DNA from: Comamonadaceae bacterium | GTDB taxonomy: Bacteria; Pseudomonadota; Gammaproteobacteria; Burkholderiales; Burkholderiaceae_C | Direction of reading: 5' to 3' | DNA: 64,000 nt | NCBI GenBank assembly: GCA_027484105.1 | Contig: JAIXUG010000006.1 | Location: 62,001-126,000 of the forward strand | Part shown: one piece after another, positions 31,897 to 49,624 of the stretch | Numbering within the stretch: position 1 is the stretch's first letter | How the letters are laid out: the number at the start of each line of letters is the position of its first letter | Position numbers and translations under genes: made by a program | Notes under the pieces: model-generated | Told to the model about the DNA's origin: nothing | Seen by the model: the letters and a program-made list of their open reading frames with translations, nothing else | Databases searched by the model: none

Positions 31897-31971
31897 GGGC
31901 GATTAGCTCAGCGGTAGAGCACTGCATTCACACTGCAGGGGTCACATGTTCGATCCATGTATCGCCCACCA
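31897..31971 (+). tRNA. tRNA-Val (anticodon CAC)
   Basis: A complete 75-nt cloverleaf. The acceptor is GGGCGAT with ATCGCCC, the D stem GCTC/GAGC, the anticodon stem CTGCA/TGCAG around TTCACAC (anticodon CAC) and the T arm ACATG-TTCGATC-CATGT. The discriminator A and the CCA end are encoded. It is followed by a terminator. Its 3' half, from the anticodon loop on, is duplicated at 49528, which marks it as an integration target. Confidence 0.96.
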
Positions 31972-32023
31972 AAATTACCCATGAAATCAAGCACCTGGAG
32001 GCAACTCCAGGTGCTTTTTCTTT
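31927..32023 (+). other. Left attachment repeat (attL) of the tRNA-Val island
   Basis: These 97 bp recur without mismatch at 49528-49624, in direct orientation. The block runs from the tRNA anticodon loop through the T arm, the CCA end and the terminator. A direct repeat that begins at an anticodon loop and restores the tRNA is the classical mark of tyrosine-recombinase integration. Confidence 0.88.
31989..32023 (+). terminator. Terminator of tRNA-Val
   Basis: A perfect stem, AGCACCTGGAG (31990-32000) with CTCCAGGTGCT (32005-32015), a GCAA loop and a TTTTCTTT tail. Confidence 0.93.
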
Positions 32024-32470
32024 GGTTCAAAGTAGTATGGTCCGGTTTACGACTCCTCATAGATTTTTCGATGTCTTTTCACAGATTTCGGAACAGTCAA
32101 ACAAGCCTATATCAATGTCTACGCAATGAAGCGCGAATGGCTTCGGTGGGTTAGTGCGTTTCGACCCTGCGCAAACACGGCTAGCTCTGTCCGCAGCTTG
32201 AAAAAACGCTACGTTTGTTTTGATCGAAGACGAGCTACTCAGCCCACCGAGTCGAGGAAAAAACACGTTGTAGGGCTTTTTTGATGCCCGGACGGCTGCC
32301 GACTTGAAAAAAGCACAGCCTTAAGCTGACTTTGTATTAAAACTGTCGCTAAGGATGGTAGTAGTTGTGTCATTTACATTCATCGTGCACCTGGGTGAAC
32401 TGTTAACCCAACAAGAAATGTAGCAATCTAAAAATGCAGTGTCTTCCCCATATGCGGGTACTACTAGTTA
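32024..32470. other. Gene-free stretch at the left end of the island
   Basis: I see no credible gene in these 447 bp. Short open frames on either strand lack recognisable motifs. An integrase gene would be expected here, next to the intact tRNA, but I find no tyrosine-recombinase motif; decayed remnants cannot be excluded by eye. Confidence 0.6.
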
Positions 32471-33145
32471 TTACCTTACGTCAGACTTTTTTTCAGGTGG
32501 TGCAGGCTGATGCACCCATCCTTCGCCTCCAGGCGGGCGCTGCAGCATAGGCCGGTTGAAGATCTCCCCAAGTGCCGAGTAGTACGGACCACCTAAGCGC
32601 GCGACAGGGTTCATCGCCACGGAGTCAACCCGCTGTCCGTCGTAAATATCAGTCGACAAATGAAAGGCCACCACTTCGCCGATATAGAGTGTGTTGCGTC
32701 CCTTGCCAAGCACGATGAACTGGTCGAGCTTGCACTCCATCTGCACCGGGGAGGAAGCGATGCGCGGAGGCCGGACGTGTGTGCTGGTAAGCAATTCGAT
32801 GTTCAACGCGTCGGTTTCGCTGACGTCTGGCGGGTACTCTGAAGCGCTGGCGTGCATCACCGCCATCGTCGCTACATCGGCCACGTTGACGACGAACTCT
32901 CGCGTTTGACGGATATTGCGTGCGGTGTCTTTGAGAGTATCGCCTTTCGACGTGATATTTACTGCCAGCATCGGCGGGTCGGTGGCAACATAGTTGTAAG
33001 AGCTGAAAGGCGCTGCGTTAACCCGACCGCTTGCGTCAACAGTAGTAATCCAGGCAATCGGCCGCGGAACAACACAACCCACCAGTAGCCGGTAAGCCTC
33101 GGCGGTATCTAAGCCAAGTGCATCAACAAAAGCAAACTTATTCAT
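32471..33145 (-). CDS. Flavin reductase family protein (FMN split barrel)
   Basis: A 224-residue protein of the flavin reductase-like family. The N-terminal RLLVGCVVPRPIAWITTVD and AAPFSSYNYVATDPPML are the usual FMN-binding segments. Such proteins supply reduced flavin to monooxygenases or act as flavin oxidoreductases. No partner oxygenase is seen in the window. It is the first gene inside the island, 24 bp downstream of a Bug gene on the same strand, so probably co-transcribed with it. Confidence 0.85.
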   Translation of the reverse strand: MNKFAFVDALGLDTAEAYRLLVGCVVPRPIAWITTVDASGRVNAAPFSSYNYVATDPPMLAVNITSKGDTLKDTARNIRQTREFVVNVADVATMAVMHASASEYPPDVSETDALNIELLTSTHVRPPRIASSPVQMECKLDQFIVLGKGRNTLYIGEVVAFHLSTDIYDGQRVDSVAMNPVARLGGPYYSALGEIFNRPMLQRPPGGEGWVHQPAPPEKKSDVR

Positions 33146-33169
33146 GGTTGCTGGGCCGCAAAGGCGTTG

Positions 33170-35242: not shown

Positions 35243-35511
35243 AAGACTGGCGACCGATTGAGTCCAAGCATGAGCTGTCGGTGCAACTGCTGGGATAACG
35301 CGGTGGCTTAGTCGTTCTTCAGGAACCTGAAAAGTGAACGTATCAAAAGGCGGATTTACAGCACAAGGGCTGAGGCCAAGTCGGAAATCTTTGATTACTT
35401 TGCGGGTTTCTACAATCGAGTTCGGCGTCATAAGCACCTCGATCAATTCAGCCCCTATGAGTTCGAGCGGTAGCGTCAAACTGCGCTATAAAAACTGTCT
35501 AGGGATTTGGG
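35243..35511 (+). pseudogene. IS3-family transposase C-terminal remnant
   Basis: The frame through 35270 reads SMSCRCNCWDNAVA, then a TAG (35309-35311), then SFFRNLKSERIKRRIY, AKSEIFDYFAGFYN and SPYEFER before a final stop at 35471-35473. This is the end of an IS3-family OrfB (family pattern SMSRRGNCWDNAVAESFF). The TAG stands exactly where the catalytic DDE glutamate belongs. The sequence on to 35511 resembles that next to the second remnant at 49135. The rest of the element is gone. Confidence 0.82.
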
Positions 35512-35901
35512 AGGTTGCCACTCTTGAATGCAAACAAATGCGGTGCCAATCGGTCAGTGCATCAACTGCGCGACTCAATCCAGCATGGTCTTTGGCCGAG
35601 GTGTTATGAGTCGCTCACCAGGTTCAGTCAATTACCCATTGAGAACTGTCCATGGATTTGGGGGAATGCCAAACCATCATGGACTGCATCAGGCCGGCAG
35701 AATTGATGCCGCTCCAAGTTGCAGAATTAGGTCATATCGCCTAAGCTACATCTTCATTTCAACAACCTACATCAACGAAATTTTTTGAAAGTTGGTGTTG
35801 AGAGTGTGTATCTTTAATCTGTCTGTGGCTCAGCTGACCAATAATGGAATGCGATTTGATGACAGACGTACAGAGAAATTTTTTTATTTAAAGGATTGAT
35901 T
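35512..35901. other. Gene-free stretch upstream of the MBL gene
   Basis: About 390 bp without a credible gene, strongly A+T-rich at the right end. It contains a segment at 35551-35590 that is imperfectly repeated near 49728. The promoter of the metallo-hydrolase gene probably lies in the last 120 bp. The AAAGG ribosome site at 35889-35894 belongs to that gene. Confidence 0.5.
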
Positions 35902-36969
35902 ATGAAGATATTTGATTTTTTGAAAAATACAGCAAATAATGATTCTACTCAATTCAATAGAAGAAAATTTATAAATTTCGGATGTGCCTGCTGTTTTACT
36001 ACAGTTGGATTAATATCCAAGGCGCAAGCGCAAATTCCGGAAGTTCAAAAACATTTGAATGCCGCCCGAGTCGCTGCAGGAAAAGATTTGCTGCCTTATC
36101 TGAAATTGGCCGAAGTGGCAGATCCTGCTTTACGAGATCCAAAAAGTTTAACCCCCCAGCAGTTGATGGCTTTGCCTGCCCCTCCACCAGGAAAGGCATT
36201 TGATAATCTTTATTTTGTAGGTAGTAAATGGGTAAGCTGCTGGGCAATTACGACAAGTGACGGCATAATATTAATTGATGCAATGGATAATGACGATGAG
36301 GCAGAGCACATCATCGAAAAAGGTATGCGCGAAATTGGATTAGATCCTGCGCAAATCAAGATGATTGTGGTGACGCATGCACATGGTGATCACTATGGTG
36401 GTGTCGGTTACCTCAAGCGCCGCTATGGACCTGGCATTCACTTCAGTGAAATAGACTGGCAAATGATGTCAACGCAATTGGAGTTTGATCGTCCCTATTG
36501 GGGAAGGCCGCCTAAACGTGATCCATCGAAGGATTTAGCGCTAAGAAATGGTGATGTGATTCAATTGGGAAACACAAAAATTGAAGTCATGCTAACGCCT
36601 GGTCATACAGTTGGAACAATATCTTTGCTTTTTGATGTACACCAAGGTCAGAAAACTTATCGGACATTTTTGTGGGGCGGTACAGCGTTTAACTTCGGCA
36701 TGCGGCCAGAGCGGATGTCACGCATCCAAAGCTACATCGATGCAACGGATAAAGCAAGACAGATTGCATTGCAACAGAACATTGAGGTCTTTATTTCCAA
36801 CCATAACGGATACGATGAAGCCGTCGAAAAATTGGCAACGATTCGAGCTCAATCGCAGGTAGGAAAAAATCCCTTTGTCATCGGTGCACAAGCAACCTAC
36901 AGGGCTTTGACGGTCATGCACGAGTGTGCAACTGCCACCCAAATTGCTTGGCAAAATACTAAATCCTGA
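35902..36969 (+). CDS. Exported metallo-beta-lactamase-fold hydrolase (Tat signal)
   Basis: A 355-residue MBL-fold protein. The N-terminus has a twin-arginine stretch (NRRKFINFGCACC) and a hydrophobic segment ending near KAQAQ, suggesting Tat export. The metal site is HAHGDH (His159, His161, Asp163, His164), with a further His235 in TPGHTVGT. The layout resembles subclass B3 enzymes, but resistance cannot be inferred; in a catabolic cluster, lactone or ester hydrolysis is as likely. AAGGATT precedes the ATG. The gene is clearly more A+T-rich than the core genes. Confidence 0.85.
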   Translation: MKIFDFLKNTANNDSTQFNRRKFINFGCACCFTTVGLISKAQAQIPEVQKHLNAARVAAGKDLLPYLKLAEVADPALRDPKSLTPQQLMALPAPPPGKAFDNLYFVGSKWVSCWAITTSDGIILIDAMDNDDEAEHIIEKGMREIGLDPAQIKMIVVTHAHGDHYGGVGYLKRRYGPGIHFSEIDWQMMSTQLEFDRPYWGRPPKRDPSKDLALRNGDVIQLGNTKIEVMLTPGHTVGTISLLFDVHQGQKTYRTFLWGGTAFNFGMRPERMSRIQSYIDATDKARQIALQQNIEVFISNHNGYDEAVEKLATIRAQSQVGKNPFVIGAQATYRALTVMHECATATQIAWQNTKS

Positions 36970-37071
36970 GCGCGTGGCAAGCATCAAACAAATGCATATC
37001 TGTTTTGCTGATTGATGTATGTCGGGAACTCTCTGTATTTCGCATAATTGCAGGCGCAAAGGAATTCAACA

Positions 37072-38046
37072 GTGATTACACGTCATCAATTCATCAAACT
37101 TTTGGCTTTACCTTGCGCTGCTGTTTTATCTACAGCTTCATTGGCGCAGTCTTGGCCCAGTAAGCCAGTCCGAATTGTGGTGCCCTTTGCTGCGGGTGGC
37201 CCTGCTGATTCTCTCGCCAGATTCATTGGTACAAGGATGGCAAGCGACTTAGGTCAACCTGTTGTGATAGATAACAAGGCTGGCGCAGGCGGCACCTTTG
37301 GCGCTTCAGAGGTCATTCGATCCAATGATGGTCACTCTTTTCTGTTTTCGTCTACTGGCGCACTTTCAATTGTTCCGGCCCTGATGACGAATTTGACTTA
37401 CAACCCAGAACGTGACTTGACGGCTGTGGCCTATGCCGTAACAACGCCCTCCATGATCGTTGTTTCTGGCAAAAGCCCGTTCAATTCAATTGCTGAACTT
37501 GTTAAATTTGCGAAACAGAATCCTGGCAAATTGAACTTTGCCTCTGCTGGAAGCGGAACATCAACCCACCTTGGCGCGGAATTGTTGAAAAAAGAAGCCG
37601 GTATATTCATGACCCACATTCCTTACAGGGGTGCGGCACCTGCAACCACCGATTTGATCGCTGGCACGGTTGACCTCATGCTGGCCGATGTGCCCGCAGT
37701 TGTTTCTTTTGTGAAGGGTGGTCAGCTGAAAGCATTGGCTGTTACCGCGCCGCAAAGAGCCCCTGCATTGCCAGATGTTCCCACCACCACTGAGGTTAAT
37801 CTCAAAGGCGTTCAAGGTGGCACTTGGTATGGTCTGATGGCCCCATCTAAGACCCCAGTTGAGAACATTGCAAAGCTGAATTCAGCAATGAACAAGGTTT
37901 TGCAAAGTCCGGAAGCCATTGCGTTTTTTAGGGCGCAGGGTGTTCAGGCAGTGGGCGGCAGTCCAGAAGAGTTTGGCTCATTCATCAAGTCAGAGTCCCT
38001 CAAATGGGGTGCTTTGGCCAAAGCAGTTGGCGCCAAGCTAGACTAA
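37072..38046 (+). CDS. Bug/TctC-family periplasmic solute-binding protein
   Basis: A 324-residue receptor with a signal peptide (FIKLLALPCAAVLSTASLAQS) and the family segments RIVVPFAAGGPADSLAR, VIDNKAGAGGTFGASEVI, IPYRGAAPATTDLIAG and PDVPTTTEV. I chose the GTG at 37072 because AAAGGA lies 8 nt before it; a TTG at 37048 is less likely. It lies 102 bp after the MBL gene on the same strand and is convergent with the fumarase-type pair, 5 bp from its stop. The transported substrate may be what this cluster degrades. Confidence 0.9.
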   Translation: MITRHQFIKLLALPCAAVLSTASLAQSWPSKPVRIVVPFAAGGPADSLARFIGTRMASDLGQPVVIDNKAGAGGTFGASEVIRSNDGHSFLFSSTGALSIVPALMTNLTYNPERDLTAVAYAVTTPSMIVVSGKSPFNSIAELVKFAKQNPGKLNFASAGSGTSTHLGAELLKKEAGIFMTHIPYRGAAPATTDLIAGTVDLMLADVPAVVSFVKGGQLKALAVTAPQRAPALPDVPTTTEVNLKGVQGGTWYGLMAPSKTPVENIAKLNSAMNKVLQSPEAIAFFRAQGVQAVGGSPEEFGSFIKSESLKWGALAKAVGAKLD

Positions 38047-38051
38047 TTTCG

Positions 38052-38699
38052 TCATTCGGATTGACTTAACCTGCTTGCTTTCATCTCTGACAGGATGGCA
38101 GGCAGTTTTTCCCGTACCTTGTCTTGCGCTTGGCGATAAGTGCTTTGTCCATGCGAGTCAATGGCGACGGTGACGGGCCCCAATCCCTCAACTCGCAGGC
38201 GTACCAGTCTGTAATGCATCAGCATGTCGCTCCAACCCACCTCAAGCACCTCTTTCACACCCTTGGTGTGCAAGGTGGCACCCCCTCCTAAAAAAGACAA
38301 GTAGACGCAGCCCACCTTTTGCATGGCTTGCACGCAAGCTTCATCAAGACCGCCTTTACCACCAACTGCATGCAATTGAAGCTCTGTAATCAGGCGAGGC
38401 ATGAGTGGGTTAAAGCGCGTACTGGTGGTCGGATTGATGTACAGCAAGTCTAAATTGGGTGTGCCGTTGGCTGACGTTGTGATCTCTTGACTGTAACTAC
38501 CAAGATGGAAAATTGATTTGTCTTTTAGGTCCATCGGCATTGGTTCTTTGCCATCTAAACAACCAATAAGCCTTTGATGGGTTGGAAGTCCCGCTGTCAC
38601 AATAATTTCACCATCGATGATCAATTGATCACCCGCTTTTAATTTTCTGGCATCGCTGGCTGTCAATGGAAAATTCATTCGATGTGTTTGTATCGTCAT
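38052..38699 (-). CDS. Fumarase / L-tartrate dehydratase-type hydro-lyase, beta subunit
   Basis: A 215-residue protein matching the C-terminal domain of class I Fe-S fumarases (FumA-C / TtdB). Visible are AGDQLIIDGEIIVTAGLPTHQRL, INPTTSTRFNP, and YLSFLGGGATLHTKGV near the active site. It is preceded by the alpha subunit gene with a 3-bp gap. Two-subunit enzymes of this group hydrate fumarate, mesaconate or tartrate-type acids; which one cannot be read off. Confidence 0.9.
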   Translation of the reverse strand: MTIQTHRMNFPLTASDARKLKAGDQLIIDGEIIVTAGLPTHQRLIGCLDGKEPMPMDLKDKSIFHLGSYSQEITTSANGTPNLDLLYINPTTSTRFNPLMPRLITELQLHAVGGKGGLDEACVQAMQKVGCVYLSFLGGGATLHTKGVKEVLEVGWSDMLMHYRLVRLRVEGLGPVTVAIDSHGQSTYRQAQDKVREKLPAILSEMKASRLSQSE

Positions 38700-38702
38700 T
38701 GT

Positions 38703-39572
38703 TCACTCCAGGATTTCAACGGAGCAGTCGTTGAAGATGCGCGCCCGTGTTCTGCGATTGATCCAGCAATTGAACGCAACTGCAACTGGCGTAAAACCGT
38801 GCCCGGCTGCATAGTTGACGTGAACTGACATGGCTGTGTTGTCTCCGCCTGTGCCCATGGGGCCAAAACCAGTTTGGTTGATAGCATTTAACAAACGTTT
38901 TTCAATGGAGGCAACCAATGGCTCTGGGTGAGACTCTCCAATGGGTCGCAAGGTAGCTTCTTTGGCCATTTTGGCTGCGTAATCAAACGTGCCGCCAATA
39001 CCAACACCAATGACCACCGGAGGGCAAGGTTGTGAGCCGGCGCGAATTACAACGTCAAGCACATAGGCTTCAATGGTGTCCAAGTCCGGAAAGCTGAAAA
39101 TTTCAAGTGCAGCCCATCGACCTGAGCCGAGTGCTTTTGGCGAGCAGGTAATGTCAATGTAATCCGCATCATCTAACAAGTCGAAGGTCACAATGGGCAT
39201 GCCCTTACCTTCATATCCTCTTTCAAGCGTCAGCGGGTGCGTGACATGGGGCAAAAGGGGCGGGTGAATGGTTTTGACCAGATCTGCAAATCCTTCCGTG
39301 ATGGCTTGCCGCACGTTGCCAGAAAAATTGGCCTGAGTTCCGACGCGGATGAAAAAAACCGGGATGCCAGCATCCGAGCAAATGAAGTGTCCACCTTCAT
39401 AAGCAGCCTGTGCGCTCTGCATCATGATTTTTAAAGTGTGGCGAGCGGTTTCGTTGGATTCATTCCGATCGGCCAGCTCAAGTCCACGCATGGTGTCTGT
39501 AGGAATGCCGCGAAGCGACCGATCGTAAAGCTGTGCAGTGACCTGCTTGATTATTTCAGGAGTGATTGCCAT
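38703..39572 (-). CDS. Fumarase / L-tartrate dehydratase-type hydro-lyase, alpha subunit
   Basis: A 289-residue protein matching the [4Fe-4S] domain of class I fumarases (TtdA type). The three cluster cysteines are probably Cys65 (FICSDAG), Cys183 (SQPCPPVVIG) and Cys269 (FNCWINRRT). GIGGTFDYAAKMAKEA is a strongly conserved stretch. Its start overlaps the end of the PanE-like gene by 17 bp, so the three genes form one operon. The neighbouring CoA-transferase and acyl-CoA enzymes make a dicarboxylate substrate likely. Confidence 0.9.
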   Translation of the reverse strand: MAITPEIIKQVTAQLYDRSLRGIPTDTMRGLELADRNESNETARHTLKIMMQSAQAAYEGGHFICSDAGIPVFFIRVGTQANFSGNVRQAITEGFADLVKTIHPPLLPHVTHPLTLERGYEGKGMPIVTFDLLDDADYIDITCSPKALGSGRWAALEIFSFPDLDTIEAYVLDVVIRAGSQPCPPVVIGVGIGGTFDYAAKMAKEATLRPIGESHPEPLVASIEKRLLNAINQTGFGPMGTGGDNTAMSVHVNYAAGHGFTPVAVAFNCWINRRTRARIFNDCSVEILE

Positions 39573-40575: not shown

Positions 40576-41568
40576 TTAGGAGTGCCAAATGCCTTGCTTC
40601 GCCATTTCGCTAACAATCTTCACCATCGTTGAAGCCGTTGCGGTCATGGCACGTGAAGGCCCTTTTGATTTAGAGAATGACATAACCACTGAGCGTTGAA
40701 CGGATGGTTCTACAATTTTTGCCGCTTGCAATTGTCCAGACTGGATCTCGTGCCAAACGGCATGAATCGGCAACACCGTAAACAGTCTTTCTTGTTCTGT
40801 CAGTTGTTTTTGCAATGGCAAAGAATCGGCTTCAATTACAGGAGCAATGGACACATGCTCTTGTTTTGCAATGTTGTCTAAGGTTGTTCTCAGTCCGTTG
40901 GGGGAGGAGGGAAGTATGAACGGCAGACCATCCAGTTCTTTGAACTTCACAAACTCTTTGTTCGTGATCTTGTCACCTTTGTAACCGATTAAGTAGCTGT
41001 CAACCGTTGCCAGTAACTCTTCGTGATCGGGTTGTAAGTTTCCGTAGCGGTACAAAATTGCAATGTCTACTCTGGCATCATTGAGCCACTCCTCGACTTG
41101 ACCGCTTGAGCCTTCAACGATCTTGATCTTGACATTGGGGTGTTTTTCTTTGATCTCCACAAATAGTTTGCGCATCAGCATAGTGCCGATGGAGGGTAGT
41201 GTTCCAATAATGACAGTGCCACTGGGTTCGCGATGATCTGCACGGATGTGATGCTCTAAAGCTTGTGCACGCTCTAATAGGTCTTTGACCTCAACGAAAA
41301 GTTTGGCGCCTACTTCGGACAGTTCAACCCCGCGGCCTGTTCTGATAAAAAGCCTTGTGCTGCATTCGCGTTCTAAGGCGTTAATCAGTCTGCTCAAAAA
41401 AGATTGGTTGCTGTTTAAAAAAACTGCAGCGCGCGTTAAGCTTCCTAGTTCAGCAATTGCAACAAACGATCGCCATTTTTGGAGGTCAGATGTGATGTCA
41501 AGCTGGTAGCTTGTGGCACGGTGTTGGGTCATCGCTGAATTATCCTGACGATTGATCATATTGATCAC
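40576..41568 (-). CDS. LysR family transcriptional regulator
   Basis: A 330-residue LysR regulator. The N-terminal helix-turn-helix is SFVAIAELGSLTRAAVFLNSNQSFLSRLINALE; the periplasmic-binding-like effector domain begins with GTVIIGTLPSIG. Three in-frame ATGs (41568, 41559, 41532) compete; I list the longest. It is divergent from the enoyl-CoA hydratase gene, and its 3' side faces the PanE/fumarase operon, so it may control both sides. An inverted repeat in the 143-bp gap could be its site. Confidence 0.88.
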   Translation of the reverse strand: MINMINRQDNSAMTQHRATSYQLDITSDLQKWRSFVAIAELGSLTRAAVFLNSNQSFLSRLINALERECSTRLFIRTGRGVELSEVGAKLFVEVKDLLERAQALEHHIRADHREPSGTVIIGTLPSIGTMLMRKLFVEIKEKHPNVKIKIVEGSSGQVEEWLNDARVDIAILYRYGNLQPDHEELLATVDSYLIGYKGDKITNKEFVKFKELDGLPFILPSSPNGLRTTLDNIAKQEHVSIAPVIEADSLPLQKQLTEQERLFTVLPIHAVWHEIQSGQLQAAKIVEPSVQRSVVMSFSKSKGPSRAMTATASTMVKIVSEMAKQGIWHS

Positions 41569-41595
41569 AGCATAAACACTGATAAGAGCAGGCTA

Positions 41596-41628: not shown

Positions 41629-41711
41629 GACTTGACGAAAATTAGCATACCTACTTGGCTGAGAGGTCAATAGACTGTGGCGATTAATGACAACAACTTT
41701 ATTGAGAGCAA

Positions 41712-42491
41712 ATGATGAATGATCTGACGCAATTGCAATATCAGCTCGAAAATTATGTGGCCATCTTAACTTTGGATGCGCCGCCTGTTAACGCGCTTAC
41801 GCGCACCCTGAACGATGAATTGACTGCTGCTTTGGACAGAATTTCTGAGATGGACGAAGTTCGAGCTGTCATTTTGACTGGCGCAGGCAAGGTCTTTTGT
41901 GCAGGCGCTGATTTGAAAGGCCGCGCTTCCGTCATCAAAGGCCCAGGAGACCTGCCCGCTCACTCGCGCCGTACCCGCGAATGCTTTCATGCGATTCGCG
42001 AATGCGCCAAACCCGTGATATGTGCCATCAATGGCGCCGCTTTGGGTTCTGGTTTGGCAATTGCCGCTTCTAGCGATATTTTGGTCGCTTCCGAAAAGGC
42101 AAGCCTGGGTCTCCCAGAGGTCGATGTTGGACTGTTAGGTGGCTGTAGTCACGCAATGCGTCTGTTCAGTCATTCCAGATTACGTCGCATGGCTTTGACA
42201 GGGCTGCGCGTCAATGGCGCCGAGCTCTATCGATTGGGTGTGGTGGAAGCCTGTGTTGAACACGATCAATTGATGCCAACTGCTTTGGAAATTGCACGCA
42301 GCATCGCATCCAAGAGCCCTGTTTCGACACGCATGGGCAAACACACATTGAACGTCATTGAAAACATGTCTTTGCGCGATGGCTATCGCTATGAACAAGA
42401 CATGACAGCACAAATTGGCAAAACAGAGGATGCCAAAGAAGCTCAGAAAGCCTTTGCCGAAAAGCGGCCGCCAGTCTTTGTTGGGCGATGA
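41712..42491 (+). CDS. Enoyl-CoA hydratase/isomerase family protein
   Basis: A 259-residue crotonase-fold protein. The oxyanion-hole segments are GKVFCAGADLKGR and ICAINGAALGSGLAIAASSD. The acidic residue position in LGLPEVDVGLLGG is compatible with hydratase activity. It probably hydrates the product of the acyl-CoA dehydrogenase that follows 100 bp later on the same strand. Confidence 0.88.
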   Translation: MMNDLTQLQYQLENYVAILTLDAPPVNALTRTLNDELTAALDRISEMDEVRAVILTGAGKVFCAGADLKGRASVIKGPGDLPAHSRRTRECFHAIRECAKPVICAINGAALGSGLAIAASSDILVASEKASLGLPEVDVGLLGGCSHAMRLFSHSRLRRMALTGLRVNGAELYRLGVVEACVEHDQLMPTALEIARSIASKSPVSTRMGKHTLNVIENMSLRDGYRYEQDMTAQIGKTEDAKEAQKAFAEKRPPVFVGR

Positions 42492-42591
42492 ATTTAAATT
42501 GCAGGTGTCTCTTGTGAGATAACATTTTTTTCCAAAATTGCATTTAATCATCTTTGAGCTGAAGCTTTTTAATTGTTTTCAAAGGATTTAA

Positions 42592-43833
42592 ATGTTTGCA
42601 GATTTGTCCCCTAAATCGAGAGTCTTGGTTGGCCGTTTGAAGGTGTTTTTTGACACCCATATTTACCCGAACGAAGAAAGACATCATCACGAAATGGCGG
42701 AGATGCGCCGTGAGGGCAACCCTTGGCGCCCTGTTCCCGTGGTTGAAGAACTTAAGGTAATTGCCAAATCACAAGGTCTGTGGAACATGTTTTTGCCCCA
42801 TCCTTATGAGGGGCAAGGCGGTATTTCTAATCTTGACTACGCACCCCTGTGTGAAATCATGGGCCGTGTTTCTTGGTCTGGCGAAGTCTTCAATTGCTCT
42901 GCGCCCGATACCGGCAATATGGAAACCATTGAGCGATACGGTACATCTGAACAAAAAAAGACGTGGTTGGAGCCGCTGCTTGATGGCAAGATTCGCTCTG
43001 CATTTTTGATGACAGAGCCTGCAGTGGCCTCTTCTGATGCCACCAATATTCAGTGTTCTATTCGCCGTGAAGGTGACGAGTATGTGATCAATGGTCGTAA
43101 GTGGTACTCCTCTGGCGCTGGCAGTTCCAGTTGCAAAATTTTCATCGTCATGGGCAAAACAGACGTGACCGCAGCAAGGCATTCACAACAATCCATGGTG
43201 CTTGTGCCTCGTGATACCCCAGGTGTCACTGTCATTCGACCTTTGTCTGTTTTAGGATACGACGACGCCCCGCACGGCCATATGGAAGTCCTCCTGGAAA
43301 ATGTGCGTGTTCCCGTTTCGAACGTTTTGTTGGGCGAAGGACGTGGTTTTGAAATTGCACAAGGCCGCTTAGGCCCTGGACGAATTCACCATTGCATGCG
43401 ATCCATTGGAGCAGCAGAGCGTGCTCTGGAAATGATGTGCGATCGTCTTCAAAGCCGCGTTGCTTTTGGCAAGCCACTTTCTGAGCAGTCTGTTTGGCAT
43501 GAGCGCATTGCGGAATCTCGCTGCATGATTGACCAAGCGCGTCTTTTGACTTTCAACGCAGCTTGGAAAATGGACACTGTTGGTAACAAAGATGCCAAAG
43601 CTGAGATCGCCATGATCAAGGTGGTTGCGCCTAACGTTTCTTGCAAGGTGGTTGACTGGGCCATTCAGGCGTTTGGCGCTGCCGGTGTCAGCCAAGATTT
43701 CTGGCTTGCTGAAGCTTATGCACATCAGCGTACGGTACGCTTGGTGGATGGCCCAGATGAAGTTCACCGGAATGCCATTGCCAAGTTGGAGTTGGCAAAG
43801 AGAGCTAAGCTTTCAATGGCCAAGCCTGCATGA
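42592..43833 (+). CDS. Acyl-CoA dehydrogenase, ACAD10/11-like
   Basis: A 413-residue FAD flavoprotein. Visible are [16 protein letters not shown] (FAD/substrate binding), [30 protein letters not shown] and a C-terminal [16 protein letters not shown]...[10 protein letters not shown]. The DGPDEVH ending is characteristic of the ACAD10/11 branch rather than of short- or medium-chain enzymes. It probably forms an operon with the enoyl-CoA hydratase. The substrate is unknown; a branched or hydroxylated acyl-CoA is possible. Confidence 0.88.
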
Positions 43834-43890
43834 GGTAATTCATTCGATGCATTCGCGTTTAGTCTATCCAGCTGAACGCGGCCGTGTTGT

Positions 43891-44712
43891 CTAGTTGTAG
43901 AGTGCCGAAGGGTTGGTTTTCAGAATCTTCTGAATTACCAACTCATCTTGGGTCCACTGCTTTAAAAGGTCCAGTAGATCTGGGGTGTTGGGTGTCGGTA
44001 CAACGCGGAGATGGGGCCAATCGCTGCCCCATACCAATCGATCTGGATTTTGTTGAATCATGGCTTTCATAAATGGTTTGCCAATTTCCCAGTCTGTTTG
44101 GTTCAGCAGGTTTCGATAGACGCAAAGCTTGATCCAAACATGCCCTGAATCAAGCAGCCGTAAAAGGTTTTGAAAGCCCGCATCATTGATGCCGTTTTGA
44201 GGGTTAAATCCACCCATATGATCGATCACAATCGGCACAGGCGAGGTCTTCAGAGTTTCGTAGATATCTTGTAGAGCAGCACAATCAGTCCAAATTTCAG
44301 CATGTAAATTGGCATTAGCCAAAGTCGATTTCAGACTTTGGAAGTCTTCGATTGTGGCGCTGCCTAGAAAGTTATTGGCAGCGCCGCTTCGGTGACTAAA
44401 GCGCGCAGCACGAATGCCCTGATCACGCAAGGCTGTGAAGTTCAAAGCGTTTTCAGCGCTGGCCACGATGACGCCTCTGATCCTGTGATTGTTTTGGAGC
44501 GTCTCGAAAAGTAATCGGTAGTCATCGCCGTAAGCACTCGGGTGAACCAGCACGCCATAATCGATGCCCATTTGATCAAGCAGACTCAAATATTGCTGTA
44601 CCAGGGCCTCGGGCGGCGTGTAAGTGCGGTTTGCCGCTAATGGGTAATGTTCGTAAGGACCAAAGACATGGGCATGACAGTCCCATATGCCCTTTGTCCC
44701 AGGGGTGCTCAT
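43891..44712 (-). CDS. Amidohydrolase, 2-pyrone-4,6-dicarboxylate lactonase-like
   Basis: A 273-residue TIM-barrel metal-dependent hydrolase of the amidohydrolase-2/LigI group. It shows WDCHAHVFGP (first HxH), VLVHPSAYGDD, IVIDHMGG and WGSDWPHLR with the late aspartate. LigI members open lactones such as PDC from lignin aromatics. I chose the ATG at 44712 because it overlaps the upstream stop as ATGA; an ATG at 44733 is in frame. It is last in a four-gene minus-strand operon. Confidence 0.87.
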   Translation of the reverse strand: MSTPGTKGIWDCHAHVFGPYEHYPLAANRTYTPPEALVQQYLSLLDQMGIDYGVLVHPSAYGDDYRLLFETLQNNHRIRGVIVASAENALNFTALRDQGIRAARFSHRSGAANNFLGSATIEDFQSLKSTLANANLHAEIWTDCAALQDIYETLKTSPVPIVIDHMGGFNPQNGINDAGFQNLLRLLDSGHVWIKLCVYRNLLNQTDWEIGKPFMKAMIQQNPDRLVWGSDWPHLRVVPTPNTPDLLDLLKQWTQDELVIQKILKTNPSALYN

Positions 44713-45278
44713 TTTTTCAAGTGTTGTGGCCATGGGAACTCGCCAGTGACACCATCTGGAAAAGGTATTTCATGGCAGTTAAGCGTCATCGCCACCATGG
44801 TGTAGTAACCAACCAATGCAGTCAGTTCCACAATGGTTTTGGAACCTAAACTAGCCAAGGTAGCTTGATAGGTGAGGTCTGATACAGAATTGTATTGGTT
44901 CAGTTCTACGCAAAATTGCCAGATCAATAGATCTTCGGCCGACAAATTCAAAGGTTGAGTTTGGTTCAATAATGCTTCAATGACTTCGGGCTCAATGCCT
45001 GCCTTTATGGCCTCAGGTTTGTGAGCAAACCATTCGAATGGTGATTGACACGCTCTGCCTGTGATGAGGATTGCCAATTCCGATTGACGGGGTGTCAATG
45101 ATGTTTTGTACCTTAAGAGAGCGCCAAGCGCTTGCCACTTGTCTGCTAATTCTGCGTTGTAAATAGCGGCTCTCAAGGGCCCTTGAATTCTTCCTCTGGG
45201 GCCAGAGACAATCTTGTCGTAGACTTTTCTTTGCTCTACGTCCATTGACTCAGGAGTGGGTAAAGGGATTCTTGACAT
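44709..45278 (-). CDS. Carboxymuconolactone decarboxylase family protein
   Basis: A 189-residue all-helical protein of the CMD/AhpD-like family. The conserved helix reads SELAILITGRACQSPFEWFAHKPEA; it has the E-W-x-x-H pattern and lacks the CxxC of AhpD, so a peroxidase role is unlikely. With the LigI-like gene (4-bp overlap) it suggests processing of a lactone or 2-oxoacid intermediate. Confidence 0.85.
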   Translation of the reverse strand: MSRIPLPTPESMDVEQRKVYDKIVSGPRGRIQGPLRAAIYNAELADKWQALGALLRYKTSLTPRQSELAILITGRACQSPFEWFAHKPEAIKAGIEPEVIEALLNQTQPLNLSAEDLLIWQFCVELNQYNSVSDLTYQATLASLGSKTIVELTALVGYYTMVAMTLNCHEIPFPDGVTGEFPWPQHLKK

Positions 45279-45311
45279 ATCAATACTTGAGTGAGGGGTA
45301 GTTAACCGACA

Positions 45312-45926
45312 TTAGCCATCGATAGGTTGAGTCGTTTGAAATGAGGGTCTGAGGCTTAGCTGGTTGTACCATTTAGCTAAATCAACGTACTTGGATTGCC
45401 ATTCAAGCGATTCAAACCGGTAATCGGCATAACCAAGAGCACACCCTAAGGTCAAGGTACCGATGTTGAATGAAGACTCCGAGAGTTCATTTATCTCAGA
45501 GGTTAGCAACTGCAAGCTGGCGTTGAATTTAAGTTCAAAAGCGTCCATAAGAGCGACCAGCGGTTGTTCGCGTTCTCTTTCATTGCGCCACAAGATAAGC
45601 GCGTCAAGCAGACCATCTCCTAAAGCATGCCATCGCAATGCTCGCCACTTTTCAGGACCGCTCATTGGAAACAAGGAGCCATTGCCTAAATCGTTGAGGT
45701 ACTCACAAATAACCAAAGAATCAAAAAGGTGGATGCCGTCAGCTGTCGTCAGGGTGGGAATTTTAGAAAGAGGGTTGTCTTGCATGATCCGAGCATTTGG
45801 CTTCAGCATGGCTGCAACAGATCTTAAGTTTTCGACTTGATCGTTCATACCAAGCTCGTGCAAGCAAATCATGACTTTGCGAACATAGGGCGATTTGGGT
45901 GACCAATGAAGTTTCATTTTTGGCAT
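45312..45926 (-). CDS. Glutathione S-transferase family protein
   Basis: A 204-residue GST-like protein. The N-terminal thioredoxin fold has LHWSPKSPYVRKVMICLHELG with a serine in the usual catalytic position and NPLSKIPTL (cis-Pro); DSLVICEYL completes the glutathione site. The C-terminal domain is all-helical. In such clusters a GST may isomerise or cleave a ring-fission product; the substrate is unknown. It lies 2 bp after the CoA-transferase gene. Confidence 0.87.
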   Translation of the reverse strand: MPKMKLHWSPKSPYVRKVMICLHELGMNDQVENLRSVAAMLKPNARIMQDNPLSKIPTLTTADGIHLFDSLVICEYLNDLGNGSLFPMSGPEKWRALRWHALGDGLLDALILWRNEREREQPLVALMDAFELKFNASLQLLTSEINELSESSFNIGTLTLGCALGYADYRFESLEWQSKYVDLAKWYNQLSLRPSFQTTQPIDG

Positions 45927-45928
45927 TG

Positions 45929-47152
45929 TTAGATGACTCCCTTGTCTTTGAGCGCTTTGATTTTTAACTCCCCATAGCCTAGCTCTTGAAGAATATCATT
46001 GCTGTGCTGCCCCAACATTGGTGGCGCCTTGCACTCTGGCAATTGAGCATCACTGAAACGCATGGGTGTAGCTACTTGCGGTAAGAGGACACCACAAGGG
46101 TGTTCAACATTGCGCAACATTTCTCTGGCTTTGACTTGCGGATCTTCAAAAACATCTGCAACTGAATTGATAGGGCCGCATGGAACGCCCGCTTGATCCA
46201 AGGCATCAATGATTTTGTTCCGTTCCCACTTCAGAAATTCAGCCCGAATTAAATCCATCAGTGCAGGTAAGTTGTTAATCCGCTGTGCGTTCGTTGAATA
46301 ACTTGGGTCGCTGGCATAGGTGGCTAATCCGATGACTTCACACAATTTCGTAAATTGGGCATCGTTGCCAACGACTAAAATCACGTCGCCGTCTTTGCAT
46401 GAAAACACGTCTTGAGGTTGGATGTTGGGATGTGCGTTCCCGTTGCGCTTAGGTACCTTGCCTGAAACAAGAAAATTCATGGCTTGATTGGCAAGTGAGG
46501 AGACCTGCACATCCAACATTGCGATGTCAATGTAATCGCCTTTACCGGTTTCATTGCGACGAGCCAATGCAGCTAAAACAGAAACGGCTGCGTACATGCC
46601 GGTCATTAAGTCAACAATTGGTACGCCAACCTTTTGTGGACCTGCTCCCGGTTTGCCATCGCGTTCACCTGTGACACTCATCAGTCCGCCCATGGCTTGA
46701 ATTAAAAAATCATAAGCAGGTTGTTCGCGCCTTGGGCCAGTTTGGCCAAATCCTGTGACAGAGCAATAAATGAGTTTGGGATTGATTTTTCGTAAAGAAG
46801 CTTCATCCAATCCGAACTTACTCAAAGTGCCAACTTTATAGTTTTCCAAAATGATGTCAGCCCGCATGGCCAAATCTTTGATGATTTGCTGTCCTTCAGG
46901 TTTTTCAATGCTTACCGTAATAGATCGCTTGCCGCGATTGACTGCAAGAAAATAGCCTGCCTCTGAGGTGTTTTGATTGTCTTTATCTTTCAGGTAAGGT
47001 GGGCCCCAGTGACGCGTGTCATCTCCTACGCCGGGACGCTCGACTTTGATGACCTCCGCCCCAAGATCCGCAAAAATTTGACCAGCCCAAGGCGCGGCCA
47101 AAATTCGACTCAGGTCCAAAACTTTGATGTGCGAAAGAGGGCCGCTGTTCAT
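45929..47152 (-). CDS. Class III CoA transferase (CaiB/BaiF family)
   Basis: A 407-residue enzyme that moves CoA between organic acids. Conserved segments are VLDLSRILAAPWAGQIFADLGAEVIKVE, the catalytic-Asp region LIQAMGGLMSVTGE with DLMTGMYAA, and the C-terminal GQHSNDILQELGY. It is the first gene of the operon CoA transferase, GST, CMD, amidohydrolase. It probably activates the imported acid as a CoA thioester for the acyl-CoA dehydrogenase and hydratase nearby. Confidence 0.9.
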   Translation of the reverse strand: MNSGPLSHIKVLDLSRILAAPWAGQIFADLGAEVIKVERPGVGDDTRHWGPPYLKDKDNQNTSEAGYFLAVNRGKRSITVSIEKPEGQQIIKDLAMRADIILENYKVGTLSKFGLDEASLRKINPKLIYCSVTGFGQTGPRREQPAYDFLIQAMGGLMSVTGERDGKPGAGPQKVGVPIVDLMTGMYAAVSVLAALARRNETGKGDYIDIAMLDVQVSSLANQAMNFLVSGKVPKRNGNAHPNIQPQDVFSCKDGDVILVVGNDAQFTKLCEVIGLATYASDPSYSTNAQRINNLPALMDLIRAEFLKWERNKIIDALDQAGVPCGPINSVADVFEDPQVKAREMLRNVEHPCGVLLPQVATPMRFSDAQLPECKAPPMLGQHSNDILQELGYGELKIKALKDKGVI

Positions 47153-47228
47153 ACTTTAAATCCTTGGAAAACTGCCCCATTTTGGCCCCAATTAACTTCG
47201 GGATTTAGCCTCCAAAATGCAACTCAGT

Positions 47229-47246
47229 CATGCAAATTTATGCATG
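47229..47246. promoter_or_regulatory. Inverted repeat between divergent CoA-transferase and hydrolase genes
   Basis: CATGCA (47229-47234) and TGCATG (47241-47246) are perfect arms around AATTTA. It lies in the 126-bp gap between divergent genes, a position suited to an operator. The binding protein is unknown. Confidence 0.35.
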
Positions 47247-47278
47247 TCGCAAATGTAGAAGGCTTTCTAAAATCCATC

Positions 47279-48070
47279 ATGGTCAATATGTCTCTTCAAC
47301 TACCAGACCAACACATGGTGCAAACACCTGATGCCAACATTCAGGTTTTTATGCATGGCCAAGGCCCCTCGGTCATCATCTTGCCATCCTTAGGTCGAGG
47401 CGTAGAAGATATGTTCGAATTTTCGAGCCTATTGGCTGCTGAGGGATTTCGCGTATGTCTGCTAAATCCCAGAGGAATAGGTGCCAGTCAAGGGAGCCTG
47501 GTGAACTTGAGCTTGGATCAGTTGGCAGACGATGTGGCGCATGTCATTGAAAAACTGTCGCCGTCTAAGGCCCACGTTGCAGGCCATGCTTTTGGAAATT
47601 GGGTTGCACGAAACTTAGCAACCCGACGTCCAGATTTGGTGAGAAGCGTGGCATTGATTGGCGCTGCCCACAAACAGTTCCCAGTTGAATTGAGGCATCA
47701 AATTGACATCTGTATGGACAGTTCGCTCAATGCTGACATCAGAATCCAGGCCTTAAAAACAGCTTTTTTTGCCAGTTGTAACGATCCAAGCAAATGGCTT
47801 GAGGGTTGGCACCCAGAAGTGGCTATCGCTCAGCGACAAGCAGCAGCAGCTTGTCCTAAAGCTGAATGGTGGCACGCGGGTAATGTGCAATTGTTGGATT
47901 TGCAAGGGGAAGAGGATCCTTTCGCGCCAATGGTTACTGCCTTTCAATTACAAGATGAACTCGGAAAAGATCGAGTGCGTGTTCATCGAATCCCCAGGGC
48001 CAGTCATGCGTTAATTCCCGAAAATCCAATGGAGGTCAGTCGGAAAATGACCAACTTTTTCAGACAGTGA
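47279..48070 (+). CDS. Alpha/beta-hydrolase-fold protein, Ala at the nucleophile elbow
   Basis: A 263-residue alpha/beta hydrolase. Motifs are VIILPSLGRG, LLNPRGIGASQG and a late His in PRASHALIPE. The elbow reads G-H-A-F-G (residues 102-106) with Ala104 where Ser is expected; GHA-type variants may form a real subfamily (recollection). The start is uncertain: I use the ATG at 47279; ATG at 47288 is an alternative, and the long upstream frame only overlaps the CoA-transferase gene. A Bug gene follows 21 bp later. Confidence 0.78.
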   Translation: MVNMSLQLPDQHMVQTPDANIQVFMHGQGPSVIILPSLGRGVEDMFEFSSLLAAEGFRVCLLNPRGIGASQGSLVNLSLDQLADDVAHVIEKLSPSKAHVAGHAFGNWVARNLATRRPDLVRSVALIGAAHKQFPVELRHQIDICMDSSLNADIRIQALKTAFFASCNDPSKWLEGWHPEVAIAQRQAAAACPKAEWWHAGNVQLLDLQGEEDPFAPMVTAFQLQDELGKDRVRVHRIPRASHALIPENPMEVSRKMTNFFRQ

Positions 48071-48091
48071 TGATTTTTTAGGAGCAATCAA

Positions 48092-49063
48092 ATGGATCAA
48101 TTTCTCAAATCCAAAAAAGGCTTGCTAGGCATTTTGCTAGTGACATTGATGTCCAGTGTTCATGCTTTTCCAAACAAACCCATCAAGTTGGTTGTGCCAT
48201 ATCCAGCAGGGGGTGCTGCCGATGTGATGGCTAGAGGTTTGGCCCTAAAAATGTCAACAGAGTTGGGGCAGCCCATTGTGATTGACAACAGGGGCGGTGC
48301 GAGTGGAACAACCGCCAGTGAGTTGGTGGCGAAGTCGAGTCCAGATGGCTACACACTTTTATTTGGAGCGATGCAAACTCACGCCATCAATCCGGCGCTG
48401 TACGACAAATTGCGTTACGACCCCATCAAAGATTTTGCGCCGATCAGCTTGACCCACATTAACCCCAGAGTTTTGGTGGTGAGCTCTTCATTGCAGATTA
48501 ACTCGGTTGCTGAACTTGTCGCACTTGCCAAGAAAAAACCAGACAGCGTCAGCTTTGGCTCCGCTGGCAACGGCAGTTCTAGTCACTTGGCAGGTGTCTT
48601 ATTTGCAAATTTGACGGGCACCGATTTATTGCATGTGCCCTACAAAGGAAGCGCACCCTTGGTGACTGATTTGCTCAGTGGCCGAGTCAACATTTCCTTC
48701 GATTCCTACACTGTGTATGCCGGCCATATTAAATCTGGCAAGGTGAAGGCATTGGCTGTGACTTCCAAAGACAGAATGCAAGTTTTACCAGATGTGCCTA
48801 CGCTTAACGAAAGCGGACTCAAAGGCTACGAGATATTGAATTGGCTCGGACTGTTGGCGCCAGCAGGCACGCCTGACGCAGTGATCAAATCTTTGAACAG
48901 AGTTGCCGTGCAATCGATGAAGTCTGCAGATCTACGTCAGCAACTGCTTGAAGTTGGCGTCGAGCCAGCTTTCAGTACGCCAGCACAATTTTCTGATTTG
49001 ATCAAGTCGGATGGCGTGAAATGGGCCGAGATTGTTAAAAAATCAGGCGCAACCATAGACTGA
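48092..49063 (+). CDS. Bug/TctC-family periplasmic solute-binding protein
   Basis: A 323-residue receptor with a signal peptide (GLLGILLVTLMSSVHAFPN) and the family segments IKLVVPYPAGGAADVMAR, VIDNRGGASGTTASELVAK, VPYKGSAPLVTDLLSGRV and PDVPTLNESGLKGYE. It is the last gene of the island, 21 bp after the alpha/beta hydrolase, with its own TTAGGAG-like ribosome site. No membrane subunits are present. Confidence 0.9.
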   Translation: MDQFLKSKKGLLGILLVTLMSSVHAFPNKPIKLVVPYPAGGAADVMARGLALKMSTELGQPIVIDNRGGASGTTASELVAKSSPDGYTLLFGAMQTHAINPALYDKLRYDPIKDFAPISLTHINPRVLVVSSSLQINSVAELVALAKKKPDSVSFGSAGNGSSSHLAGVLFANLTGTDLLHVPYKGSAPLVTDLLSGRVNISFDSYTVYAGHIKSGKVKALAVTSKDRMQVLPDVPTLNESGLKGYEILNWLGLLAPAGTPDAVIKSLNRVAVQSMKSADLRQQLLEVGVEPAFSTPAQFSDLIKSDGVKWAEIVKKSGATID

Positions 49064-49134
49064 AATTTAGCTTACTGAAATTCCCGTCAACTGTGTGCAG
49101 GGAGGGTCGCGAGAATTGGGCAAAGACTGGCTTT

Positions 49135-49339
49135 CCCCAAAACCCTAGACACTTTTCACAGCGCAGTTTGACGTTGCCGCTTTAGCTCTTGGGGACTGAG
49201 TTGATCGAGGTGCTTGTGGCCCTGAACCCGATTTTAAAAACCCTCGATGTAATCGAAGATTTCTGACTTGGCTTGTGCCCTGGTTGAGTAAATCCGTTTT
49301 TATCCGCTTGCTCTATAAGCTGCTGAAAAACGACTCCAC
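49135..49339 (-). pseudogene. IS3-family transposase C-terminal remnant, frameshifted
   Basis: Read on the minus strand from 49339: VESFFSSL, stop, SKRIKT, then a frameshift into IYSTRAQAKSEIFDYIEGF, stop, HKHLDQLSP. This is the same transposase region as the remnant at 35243, here with the catalytic Glu kept but with two stops and a frameshift. The sequence after the gene end (49173 down to 49135) resembles 35474-35511. The two remnants point towards each other. Confidence 0.78.
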
Positions 49340-49527
49340 ACTTTAAGAAGATGGAGCTGTGAGCAAAAAATCAAAAAAGCACTATAGGGACAGATGTCTA
49401 TCGTGTTCGAGGTGACGGCTTTGCAGCGGGGAGTGTGGCGCTGGCCACATGAGATGTGAGTCGGTGTTTGCTGCTTGTTTGCGTTAAGATTGTGTTCCGT
49501 TGCGGCGTCGCTGTTTCATGCGCTCCC
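49340..49527. other. Gene-free right end of the island
   Basis: No credible gene. A 79-residue minus-strand open frame here (49398-49637) is a by-product of the tRNA fragment. No recombinase motif is seen. Confidence 0.5.
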
Positions 49528-49624
49528 TTCACACTGCAGGGGTCACATGTTCGATCCATGTATCGCCCACCAAAATTACCCATGAAATCAAGCACCTGGA
49601 GGCAACTCCAGGTGCTTTTTCTTT
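49528..49624 (+). other. Right attachment repeat (attR): 3' fragment of tRNA-Val plus terminator
   Basis: A perfect 97-bp copy of 31927-32023. It holds the tRNA from the anticodon loop to the CCA end and the terminator stem-loop (49590-49624), without the 5' half, so it is not a functional tRNA gene. With the left copy it delimits 17,601 bp. Confidence 0.88.

What the first reader, a model, noticed from the sequence alone, without database searches (positions are those of the whole stretch)
31897..49624. 17.6-kb genomic island at tRNA-Val(CAC), bounded by a perfect 97-bp direct repeat
The 3' part of an intact tRNA-Val gene, from the anticodon loop through the terminator (31927-32023), recurs without mismatch at 49528-49624. 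The DNA between is visibly more A+T-rich than the flanking core and consists of catabolic and uptake genes. Known biology: tyrosine recombinases often cross over in the anticodon loop and leave such a repeat. The island brings a self-contained organic-acid degradation set.
Basis: partly seen in the sequence, partly recalled or inferred. Interest (0 to 1): 0.85.

Follow-up and report, generated by a model that had tools for sequence, protein, structure and literature searches.

The report
Decayed catabolic island at tRNA-Val
A lake bacterium carries a stretch of acquired food-processing genes inserted in the middle of a transfer-RNA gene; the insertion site is a busy docking point in its genus, the machinery that did the inserting has decayed to scraps, and the acquired DNA reaches further than first thought.

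Summary
The repeat is real: tRNA-Val(CAC) 31897-31971 is intact and 31927-32023 recurs without mismatch at 49528-49624. It marks insertion at the anticodon loop of a tRNA that is a recurrent target in the genus (Limnohabitans, inferred): 22 of 90 genomes hold two or more copies of this 3' half. Three genome pairs show the site with and without an insert, one of them on a single contig. So the tRNA-island reading holds, but the repeat does not bound one complete, self-contained island. No integrase gene was found inside. What remains are 3' tails of one recombinase family at 35516-35609 and 49711-49772, the first next to a truncated IS3-type transposase. Low-GC catabolic DNA runs past the second repeat to about 60.4 kb. 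In relative G043 the block matching 54.9-60.4 kb starts 1.7 kb after the intact tRNA; here it lies beyond the displaced fragment, so the 17.6-kb segment was inserted in front of an older resident. Best reading: tandem, decayed integrative elements in an additive, tRNA-anchored island; a new member of a known kind. Open: whether integrase-free segments with conserved ends are moved in trans.

The parts
31897..31971 (+). tRNA-Val(CAC), intact; integration target
   Evidence: ARAGORN
31927..32023 (+). left copy of 97-bp repeat: tRNA 3' half from the anticodon loop plus terminator
32024..32361 (+). conserved left end of an integrative element (type A), no ORF called; TCAAAGTAGTA arm-like motif at 32027
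   Evidence: about 76-87% over 200-350 bp to DNA after tRNA-Val halves in relatives; absent from the insert-free relatives of G017 and G042; motif
32471..33145 (-). flavin reductase-like protein
   Evidence: PF01613
33170..34171 (-). TctC-type solute receptor
   Evidence: PF03401
34217..35113 (-). alpha/beta hydrolase
   Evidence: PF00561
35333..35476 (+). truncated transposase C-terminus, IS3-family by its rve_2 match (family name recalled); one arm of inverted repeat I1
   Evidence: PF13333 rve_2 5e-07; inverted repeat
35516..35609 (+). 3' tail of a G081-type tyrosine recombinase gene (scar)
   Evidence: nhmmer 5e-17; tblastn residues 294-322 of 324, 8.9e-06
35896..36969 (+). metallo-beta-lactamase-fold hydrolase (below the cut-offs of all NCBIfam models shown)
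   Evidence: PF00753
37048..38046 (+). TctC-type solute receptor
   Evidence: PF03401
38052..39572 (-). two-subunit TtdAB/fumarase-type hydro-lyase (38052-38699 and 38703-39572)
   Evidence: PF05683, PF05681
39556..40554 (-). ApbA/PanE-type reductase
   Evidence: NF005089 312 bits over cut-off 223
40576..41568 (-). LysR-type regulator
41712..42491 (+). enoyl-CoA hydratase
   Evidence: NF005073 437 bits over cut-off 296
42592..43833 (+). acyl-CoA dehydrogenase
   Evidence: PF00441
43891..44733 (-). amidohydrolase, resembles pyrone-dicarboxylate and sulfomuconolactone hydrolases (166 of 500 bits, below cut-off)
44709..45278 (-). carboxymuconolactone-decarboxylase-like protein
   Evidence: PF02627
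45312..45926 (-). glutathione S-transferase
   Evidence: PF13409
45929..47152 (-). class III CoA-transferase, nearest succinate-glutarate CoA-transferase (490 of 750 bits, below cut-off)
   Evidence: PF02515
46973..48070 (+). alpha/beta hydrolase (overlaps its neighbour; start probably further in)
48092..49063 (+). TctC-type solute receptor
   Evidence: PF03401
49136..49301 (-). second, more decayed copy of the transposase remnant (other arm of I1, 80%)
49497..49527 (+). right end of an integrative element (type C); among the copies read, shared only with two in G009
49528..49624 (+). right copy of repeat: displaced tRNA 3' half plus terminator
49711..49772 (+). second, short tail of the same recombinase family (scar)
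   Evidence: nhmmer 2.3e-06; DNA match 80% over 56 bp, 1.6e-06
49797..51539 (-). 2-hydroxyacyl-CoA lyase
   Evidence: NF058623 810 bits over cut-off 600; PDB 7pt1 3.3e-176
51691..53256 (+). acyl-CoA synthetase
   Evidence: PF00501
53302..53958 (+). GntR/FCD regulator
54947..60380 (.). older resident block (ApbA-type reductase, APH-type kinase, second enolase, TGL-like protein, CBS protein, ORF 59894-60358), matching a tRNA-Val-bounded interval of G043 in three pieces, one of them inverted there
   Evidence: 82-89% DNA identity; parts also in G014, G018, G020; families
60503..61723 (-). MFS transporter: first landmark to the right of the low-G+C stretch
   Evidence: PF07690; 87-91% in seven relatives

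Best explanation
The window shows a tandem pile-up of at least two, probably three, decayed integrative elements at tRNA-Val(CAC) in a Limnohabitans genome. Tyrosine recombinases entered at the anticodon loop. Each entry rebuilt the tRNA with the 3' half carried by the element and pushed the old 3' half to the element's far end. The 17.6-kb segment was added in front of an older resident (now 49.6 to about 60.4 kb), leaving the displaced 3' half at 49528. Deletions and IS activity then removed the recombinase genes and internal boundaries, leaving tails of one recombinase family at 35.5 and 49.7 kb, an A-type left end and a C-type right end. Shown: the repeat, a shared crossover position in relatives, filled and empty sites in relatives, absence of a Pfam integrase and presence of scars, and homology of the right-hand block to a tRNA-bounded interval of G043. 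Inferred: the number of elements, the order of events, how the integrases were lost, and that the catabolic genes are used.
For: Perfect repeat. Composition. An exact pattern for the tRNA 3' half matches 69 of 90 genus genomes; 22 of 90 have two or more copies. Of the 96 copies listed there 74 were read: 45 intact, 29 displaced; likeness to the tRNA begins at the same anticodon-loop position in 27 of 29, and 3 and about 8 nt earlier in G051 and the first G054 copy (the pattern itself begins at that position, so fragments cut nearer the 3' end are missed). Empty versus filled: G048/G051 97.3% over 829 bp left and 99.3% over 1533 bp right, breaking at the tRNA, both sides on one contig; G046/G042 and G040/G017 with the filled sides on two contigs each. 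Chimeric intact tRNAs in G017 and G018, 2 of 45. PF00589 occurs 3 times in the own genome, none near. Integrase tails. Right-hand block in G043. Recombinases of matching families at the same site in relatives.
Against: No uninterrupted twin of our exact junction was found. The 97/97 identity, against 70-96 of 97 in 12 other intervals, looks young while the integrase decay looks old; gene conversion between the copies or a recent re-insertion would be needed. Boundaries inside 32.4-49.1 kb are inferred from scars only, and the second scar is short. Absence of an integrase rests on PF00589 and on comparison with recombinases seen in relatives; an unrecognised one is not excluded. In G043 the matching block is in three pieces with other genes between them and one piece inverted.
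Confidence: 0.8

Rival explanations
1. The 17.6-kb segment is one intact autonomous island with its own integration function.
For: Correct order and orientation of tRNA and fragment, suitable size, perfect repeat.
Against: No PF00589 domain in the interval; no relaxase or phage gene among the ORFs scanned with Pfam; integrase reduced to a tail.
Confidence: 0.04
2. Integrase-free catabolic segments at this site are not mere wrecks but cargo units with conserved ends, moved in trans by recombinases of neighbouring elements (satellite- or tycheposon-like).
For: 7 of 13 single-contig intervals lack a PF00589 match. G001a and G045 (both 8.1 kb, without such a match) share 237 bp of left end (87%) and 143 bp of right end (91%) and no other stretch by BLASTN, and no protein pair by BLASTP at 1e-5. 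G043's integrase-free 26-kb interval has an A-type right end, and an A-type recombinase lies on the same contig about 38 kb further.
Against: Our interval carries integrase scars and ends of different types, and our genome showed no recombinase of the families seen at this site. A 49-aa remnant in G001b and tails elsewhere fit decay. One of the 7 intervals is only 0.9 kb. No excision was tested.
Confidence: 0.2
3. Cargo is swapped by homologous recombination between tRNA-Val copies and conserved ends, without a site-specific recombinase.
For: 97/97 identity of the copies, the highest of 13 intervals; conserved left ends of some 240-340 bp before differing interiors.
Against: A common breakpoint at the anticodon loop and several dissimilar recombinases inside intervals at this tRNA fit site-specific recombination better.
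Confidence: 0.12
4. The 35.6-49.1 kb catabolic block came in as an IS3-flanked composite transposon that landed in an older tRNA-Val element.
For: Transposase remnants in inverted orientation at 35333-35476 and 49136-49301.
Against: The remnants are only 80% alike and truncated, and the right one has stops in frame; no target duplication was sought.
Confidence: 0.1

Closest known systems
tRNA-gene genomic islands as defined in the Islander database (PMC4383910; passages seen)
   Same: tRNA gene plus displaced 3' fragment in direct orientation, anticodon-centred crossover (2083 of 3919 Islander islands), size in range
   Different: Islander requires an integrase gene in each island, also in tandem arrays; here none was found, only scars
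Additive flexible genomic islands with tRNA-anchored cassettes (Alteromonas, PMC4119200, passages seen; Methylophilaceae fGI-2 with 20-nt tRNA-Lys repeats, PMC10872708, passages seen)
   Same: fixed tRNA location across a genus, variable cassettes, repeats of the tRNA end, metabolic cargo
   Different: longer repeat (97 bp) that starts in the anticodon loop; displaced halves preceded by several distinct end types
Tycheposons (described for Prochlorococcus; reported for Methylophilaceae in PMC10872708, passages seen)
   Same: tRNA-anchored, nutrient-related cargo, aquatic bacterium
   Different: a tyrosine recombinase is named as part of those elements and was not found here; the original tycheposon paper was not read

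Membership tests
tRNA-targeted genomic island (Islander definition) | intact tRNA gene plus displaced 3' fragment in the same orientation | tested here: met
tRNA-targeted genomic island (Islander definition) | length 2-200 kb | tested here: met
   17.6 kb
tRNA-targeted genomic island (Islander definition) | integrase gene inside the interval | tested here: not met
   no PF00589 match near; only a tail
Additive flexible genomic island | same location across species of a genus | tested here: met
   upstream dnaQ-like gene found in 14 of the 20 loci; tRNA halves
Additive flexible genomic island | presence/absence of cassettes at a tRNA target | tested here: met
   empty and filled sites; 13 intervals
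Integrative conjugative or mobilizable element | relaxase or conjugation genes | tested here: not met
   none among the 30 ORFs between 32471 and 63705 scanned with Pfam; smaller ORFs not scanned
Prophage | phage structural genes | tested here: not met
   none by Pfam in the same 30 ORFs; PHROGs not run
Tycheposon | tyrosine recombinase together with a tRNA end | tested here: not met
Integron cassette array / CALIN | attC sites | not tested
   no attC search was run

The most novel reading that the evidence does not exclude
Limnohabitans tRNA-Val(CAC) hosts a class of integrase-free metabolic cassettes with conserved left and right ends, which exchange whole uptake/catabolic operons between strains and are moved in trans by any of several unrelated anticodon-loop recombinases; our 17.6-kb interval would be such a cassette or a fusion of two.
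Probability: 0.2. Interest if true: 0.7.

Novelty: new member of a known kind. Interest (0 to 1): 0.4.

Why it matters
It gives a map of one tRNA docking site across 90 genomes of a lake bacterium's genus, with tandem inserts, empty and filled sites, exchanged tRNA halves and several dissimilar recombinases at one position. That makes it possible to test how catabolic genes spread among freshwater bacteria and whether integrase-free segments still move. The island itself is an ordinary, partly decayed example.

Tried and rejected
Single-island reading with 49624 as the right boundary: rejected because low G+C runs to about 60.4 kb, an integrase scar follows the second repeat and the block beyond matches a tRNA-bounded interval elsewhere.

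32024-32361 as core flank: rejected, because G017 and G042 carry it after the tRNA and their insert-free relatives G040 and G046 do not.

G010 as the empty site of our locus: in L049 the MFS gene follows tRNA-Val by about 1.2 kb, but the contig is 3.4 kb, the assembly 75% complete, and an A-type left end is still there, so it is only suggestive.

First integrase search of the window found nothing convincing because queries of the family that left scars lacked C-termini; it was repeated with full-length recombinases.

An integrase-bearing C-type element was sought in 399 family genomes: only our own copy matched (few genus genomes were drawn, and G009, which has C-type ends, was not among them).

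Hotspot outside the genus: of 80 named loci next to the dnaQ-like gene, 74 had an intact tRNA-Val start and 5 a further or different hit. Three of the 5 are the only hit in their locus (L157, L164, L181) and one (L183) follows TAGAGCACCGCC, so they look like tRNA variants or a second tRNA gene; only L205 (Limnohabitans) is a clear fragment. This test reached at most 10 kb downstream.

Literature: 'Limnohabitans' + 'genomic island' (13 papers, 12 listed) and 'Limnohabitans' + 'integrase' (19 papers, 10 listed). By title and start of abstract none of those listed describes this hotspot; none was opened, and most subscription papers are not held.
Full report
Observation. The intact tRNA is the only tRNA gene ARAGORN finds in the window. 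The window is G000:C13:62001-126000 of a 3.1-Mb, 29-contig genome. The closest named loci found through the neighbouring dnaQ-like gene are Limnohabitans and other Comamonadaceae; several unnamed contigs of the same genus match Limnohabitans records in length and position, so the genus is taken as Limnohabitans (inference).

Extent. G+C is 0.606 upstream (8001-31926), 0.486 between the repeats, 0.527 from 49625 to 60450 and 0.605 after. GC3 is 0.77 (11 upstream ORFs), 0.497 (17 ORFs between the repeats), 0.568 (9 ORFs, 49.8-59.9 kb) and 0.718 (3 ORFs, 60.5-63.7 kb). The foreign-looking stretch therefore ends near 60.4 kb, just before an MFS transporter. In G007 and G014 a homologue of that transporter lies on the same contig as a displaced tRNA half, about 49 and 56 kb beyond it.

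The site in the genus. The dnaQ-like gene upstream of our tRNA is found in 14 of the 20 relative loci; the other 6 (L031, L036, L038, L041, L042, L044) were fetched for displaced copies or weak hits. Of the window's proteins downstream of the tRNA, only two matches above 40% identity appeared in those 20 loci, the better at 47%. An exact pattern for the tRNA 3' half matched 69 of 90 genus genomes (51 of 56 of good quality), and 22 of 90 had two or more copies. I read 74 of the 96 copies listed there, including every copy in those 22 genomes: 45 intact and 29 displaced, ours included. By eye, displaced copies are preceded by DNA of type A (14), B (7), C (3: ours and two in G009) or other kinds (5). 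Likeness to the tRNA begins at the same anticodon-loop position in 27 of 29, and 3 and about 8 nt earlier in G051 and the first G054 copy. The pattern starts at that position, so fragments cut nearer the 3' end are missed. One further A-type right end in G083 (L221) turned up later and is not in these counts.

Empty and filled sites. G051 carries 42.9 kb between tRNA-Val halves on one contig and G048 has no such insert; their flanks match at 97.3% over 829 bp and 99.3% over 1533 bp, breaking at the tRNA. G046/G042 (89.9 and 88.7%) and G040/G017 (95.2 and 84.9%) give the same picture, but there the two sides of the filled site are on different contigs. In G017 the displaced half has the sequence and terminator type of insert-free relatives, while the intact gene has another 3' half and terminator, so the insert brought them. 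G017 and G018 are the 2 of 45 intact genes whose halves belong to different lineages.

Recombinases. Several dissimilar tyrosine recombinases lie at this tRNA. A-type: G007, G017, G043, G054 and G084 (94-99% alike), with a 63-64% relative in G047. G081-type: G081, G071 (88%), G083 (94%), G014 (91%, with a stop inside) and, at 67-70%, the partial G012 copy. Single ones lie inside the G051 and first G054 intervals. G004 and G021 share another type (55%) 35 and 22 kb downstream of the tRNA, where no displaced half was found. Small recombinases of 190-208 aa also occur inside some intervals. The motif TACTACTTTGA (one mismatch allowed) lies within 100 bp upstream of 19 of 29 displaced copies, against 0.003 per 100 bp in all loci held, which include these; not in ours. 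I read it as a recombinase arm site (inference).

Our interval. It has an A-type left end (32024-32361) and a C-type right end (49497-49527). PF00589 occurs three times in the whole genome, none near; two look like XerC/XerD (inference from score and length), the third is on C28 and gave no BLAST match to the recombinases at this site. A profile built from the ends of three G081-type genes (G081, G071, G014) finds the same tail in our window at 35516-35609 (5e-17) and 49711-49772 (2.3e-06), and in relative loci away from full-length genes: L054, L068, L057, L148, L038 (twice), L059, L051. Just before the first tail is the end of a transposase (rve_2; IS3 family recalled), with a decayed inverted copy at 49136-49301. 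This is how integrase loss by insertion and deletion would look (inference).

Beyond the second repeat. A 2-hydroxyacyl-CoA lyase (810 bits, cut-off 600; PDB 7pt1) and an acyl-CoA synthetase suggest a 2-hydroxy-acid pathway (inference); the pair is matched at 79-80% in 4 (one in part) and 70% in 1 of 89 other genus genomes, on contigs other than that of tRNA-Val or, in G001, another contig than the one with tRNA-Val. The block 54947-60380 matches G043 at 82-89% in three pieces, the third inverted and with other genes between; it starts 1.7 kb after the intact tRNA inside a tRNA-bounded interval. In our genome it begins 5.3 kb after the displaced half. I conclude that the 17.6-kb segment was placed between the tRNA and an older resident.

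Cargo. Between the repeats lie three lone TctC receptors, a TtdAB-type hydro-lyase, an ApbA-type reductase, LysR, enoyl-CoA hydratase, acyl-CoA dehydrogenase, CoA-transferase, an amidohydrolase near pyrone-dicarboxylate hydrolases, a GST, a metallo-beta-lactamase-fold protein, a flavin reductase and hydrolases. Organic-acid breakdown is likely; the substrate is not settled. In a DNA search with 35620-53300 (E 1e-60 or better, three places scored per genome), the part before the second repeat matched other genus genomes only at the acyl-CoA dehydrogenase (85% in G001, about 70% paralogues in most), the hydro-lyase (71% in G002) and 210 bp at the right transposase remnant (G085). So the cargo looks strain-specific at that sensitivity; 32.4-35.6 kb was not in that query.

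Wider pattern. Of 13 intervals between consecutive halves on one contig in 10 genomes, 7 have no PF00589 match: G000, G001a, G001b (49-aa remnant), G009a, G009b (0.9 kb), G043, G045; 6 have one: G047, G051, G054a, G054b, G070 (partial), G084. G001a and G009a carry transport and catabolic genes by Pfam; G045 and G043 were judged by eye from translated ORFs, G045 as TctC, TRAP-type uptake and catabolic enzymes, G043 as mixed. G001a and G045 share both ends but not cargo. Decay explains much of this, but trans movement of conserved-end cassettes is not excluded and is my novel case.

Comparison with print. Islander reports 3919 tRNA/tmRNA islands, 2083 anticodon-centred, and requires an integrase (passages of PMC4383910). 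tRNA-anchored additive islands are described in Alteromonas (passages of PMC4119200) and freshwater Methylophilaceae (passages of PMC10872708). The review PMC11389934 (passages) places tycheposons among proposed phage satellites. The kind is known; I saw no description of this site in the two listings searched.

Noticed in passing
window 54985-58224; L055, L066, L100: ApbA-type reductase, APH-type kinase and a second enolase form a conserved three-gene set (84-89% in G014, G020, G043), perhaps feeding a phosphorylated acid into glycolysis (inference).
   Followed up: partly
window 49797-53958: 2-hydroxyacyl-CoA lyase, acyl-CoA synthetase and GntR regulator: candidate 2-hydroxyisobutyrate-type module; the first two matched at 79-80% in four other genus genomes.
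   Followed up: partly
L037 4286; L045 4934: Intact tRNA-Val genes in G017 and G018 whose 5' and 3' halves come from different lineages: a natural record of half-tRNA exchange.
   Followed up: yes
L026, L112: Two 8.1-kb integrase-free intervals (G001, G045) with the same ends and unrelated operons.
   Followed up: partly
L221 near 7871 to 6746: In G083 an A-type right end is followed at once by a G081-type recombinase gene: two element families in direct tandem.
   Followed up: no
L048 52-1290 (G000:C28): The third PF00589 protein of this genome, 412 aa at a contig end, without BLAST match to the recombinases at tRNA-Val.
   Followed up: no
window 35333-35476 and 49136-49301: Inverted, truncated transposase remnants flank the catabolic block; possible old composite transposon.
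   Followed up: partly
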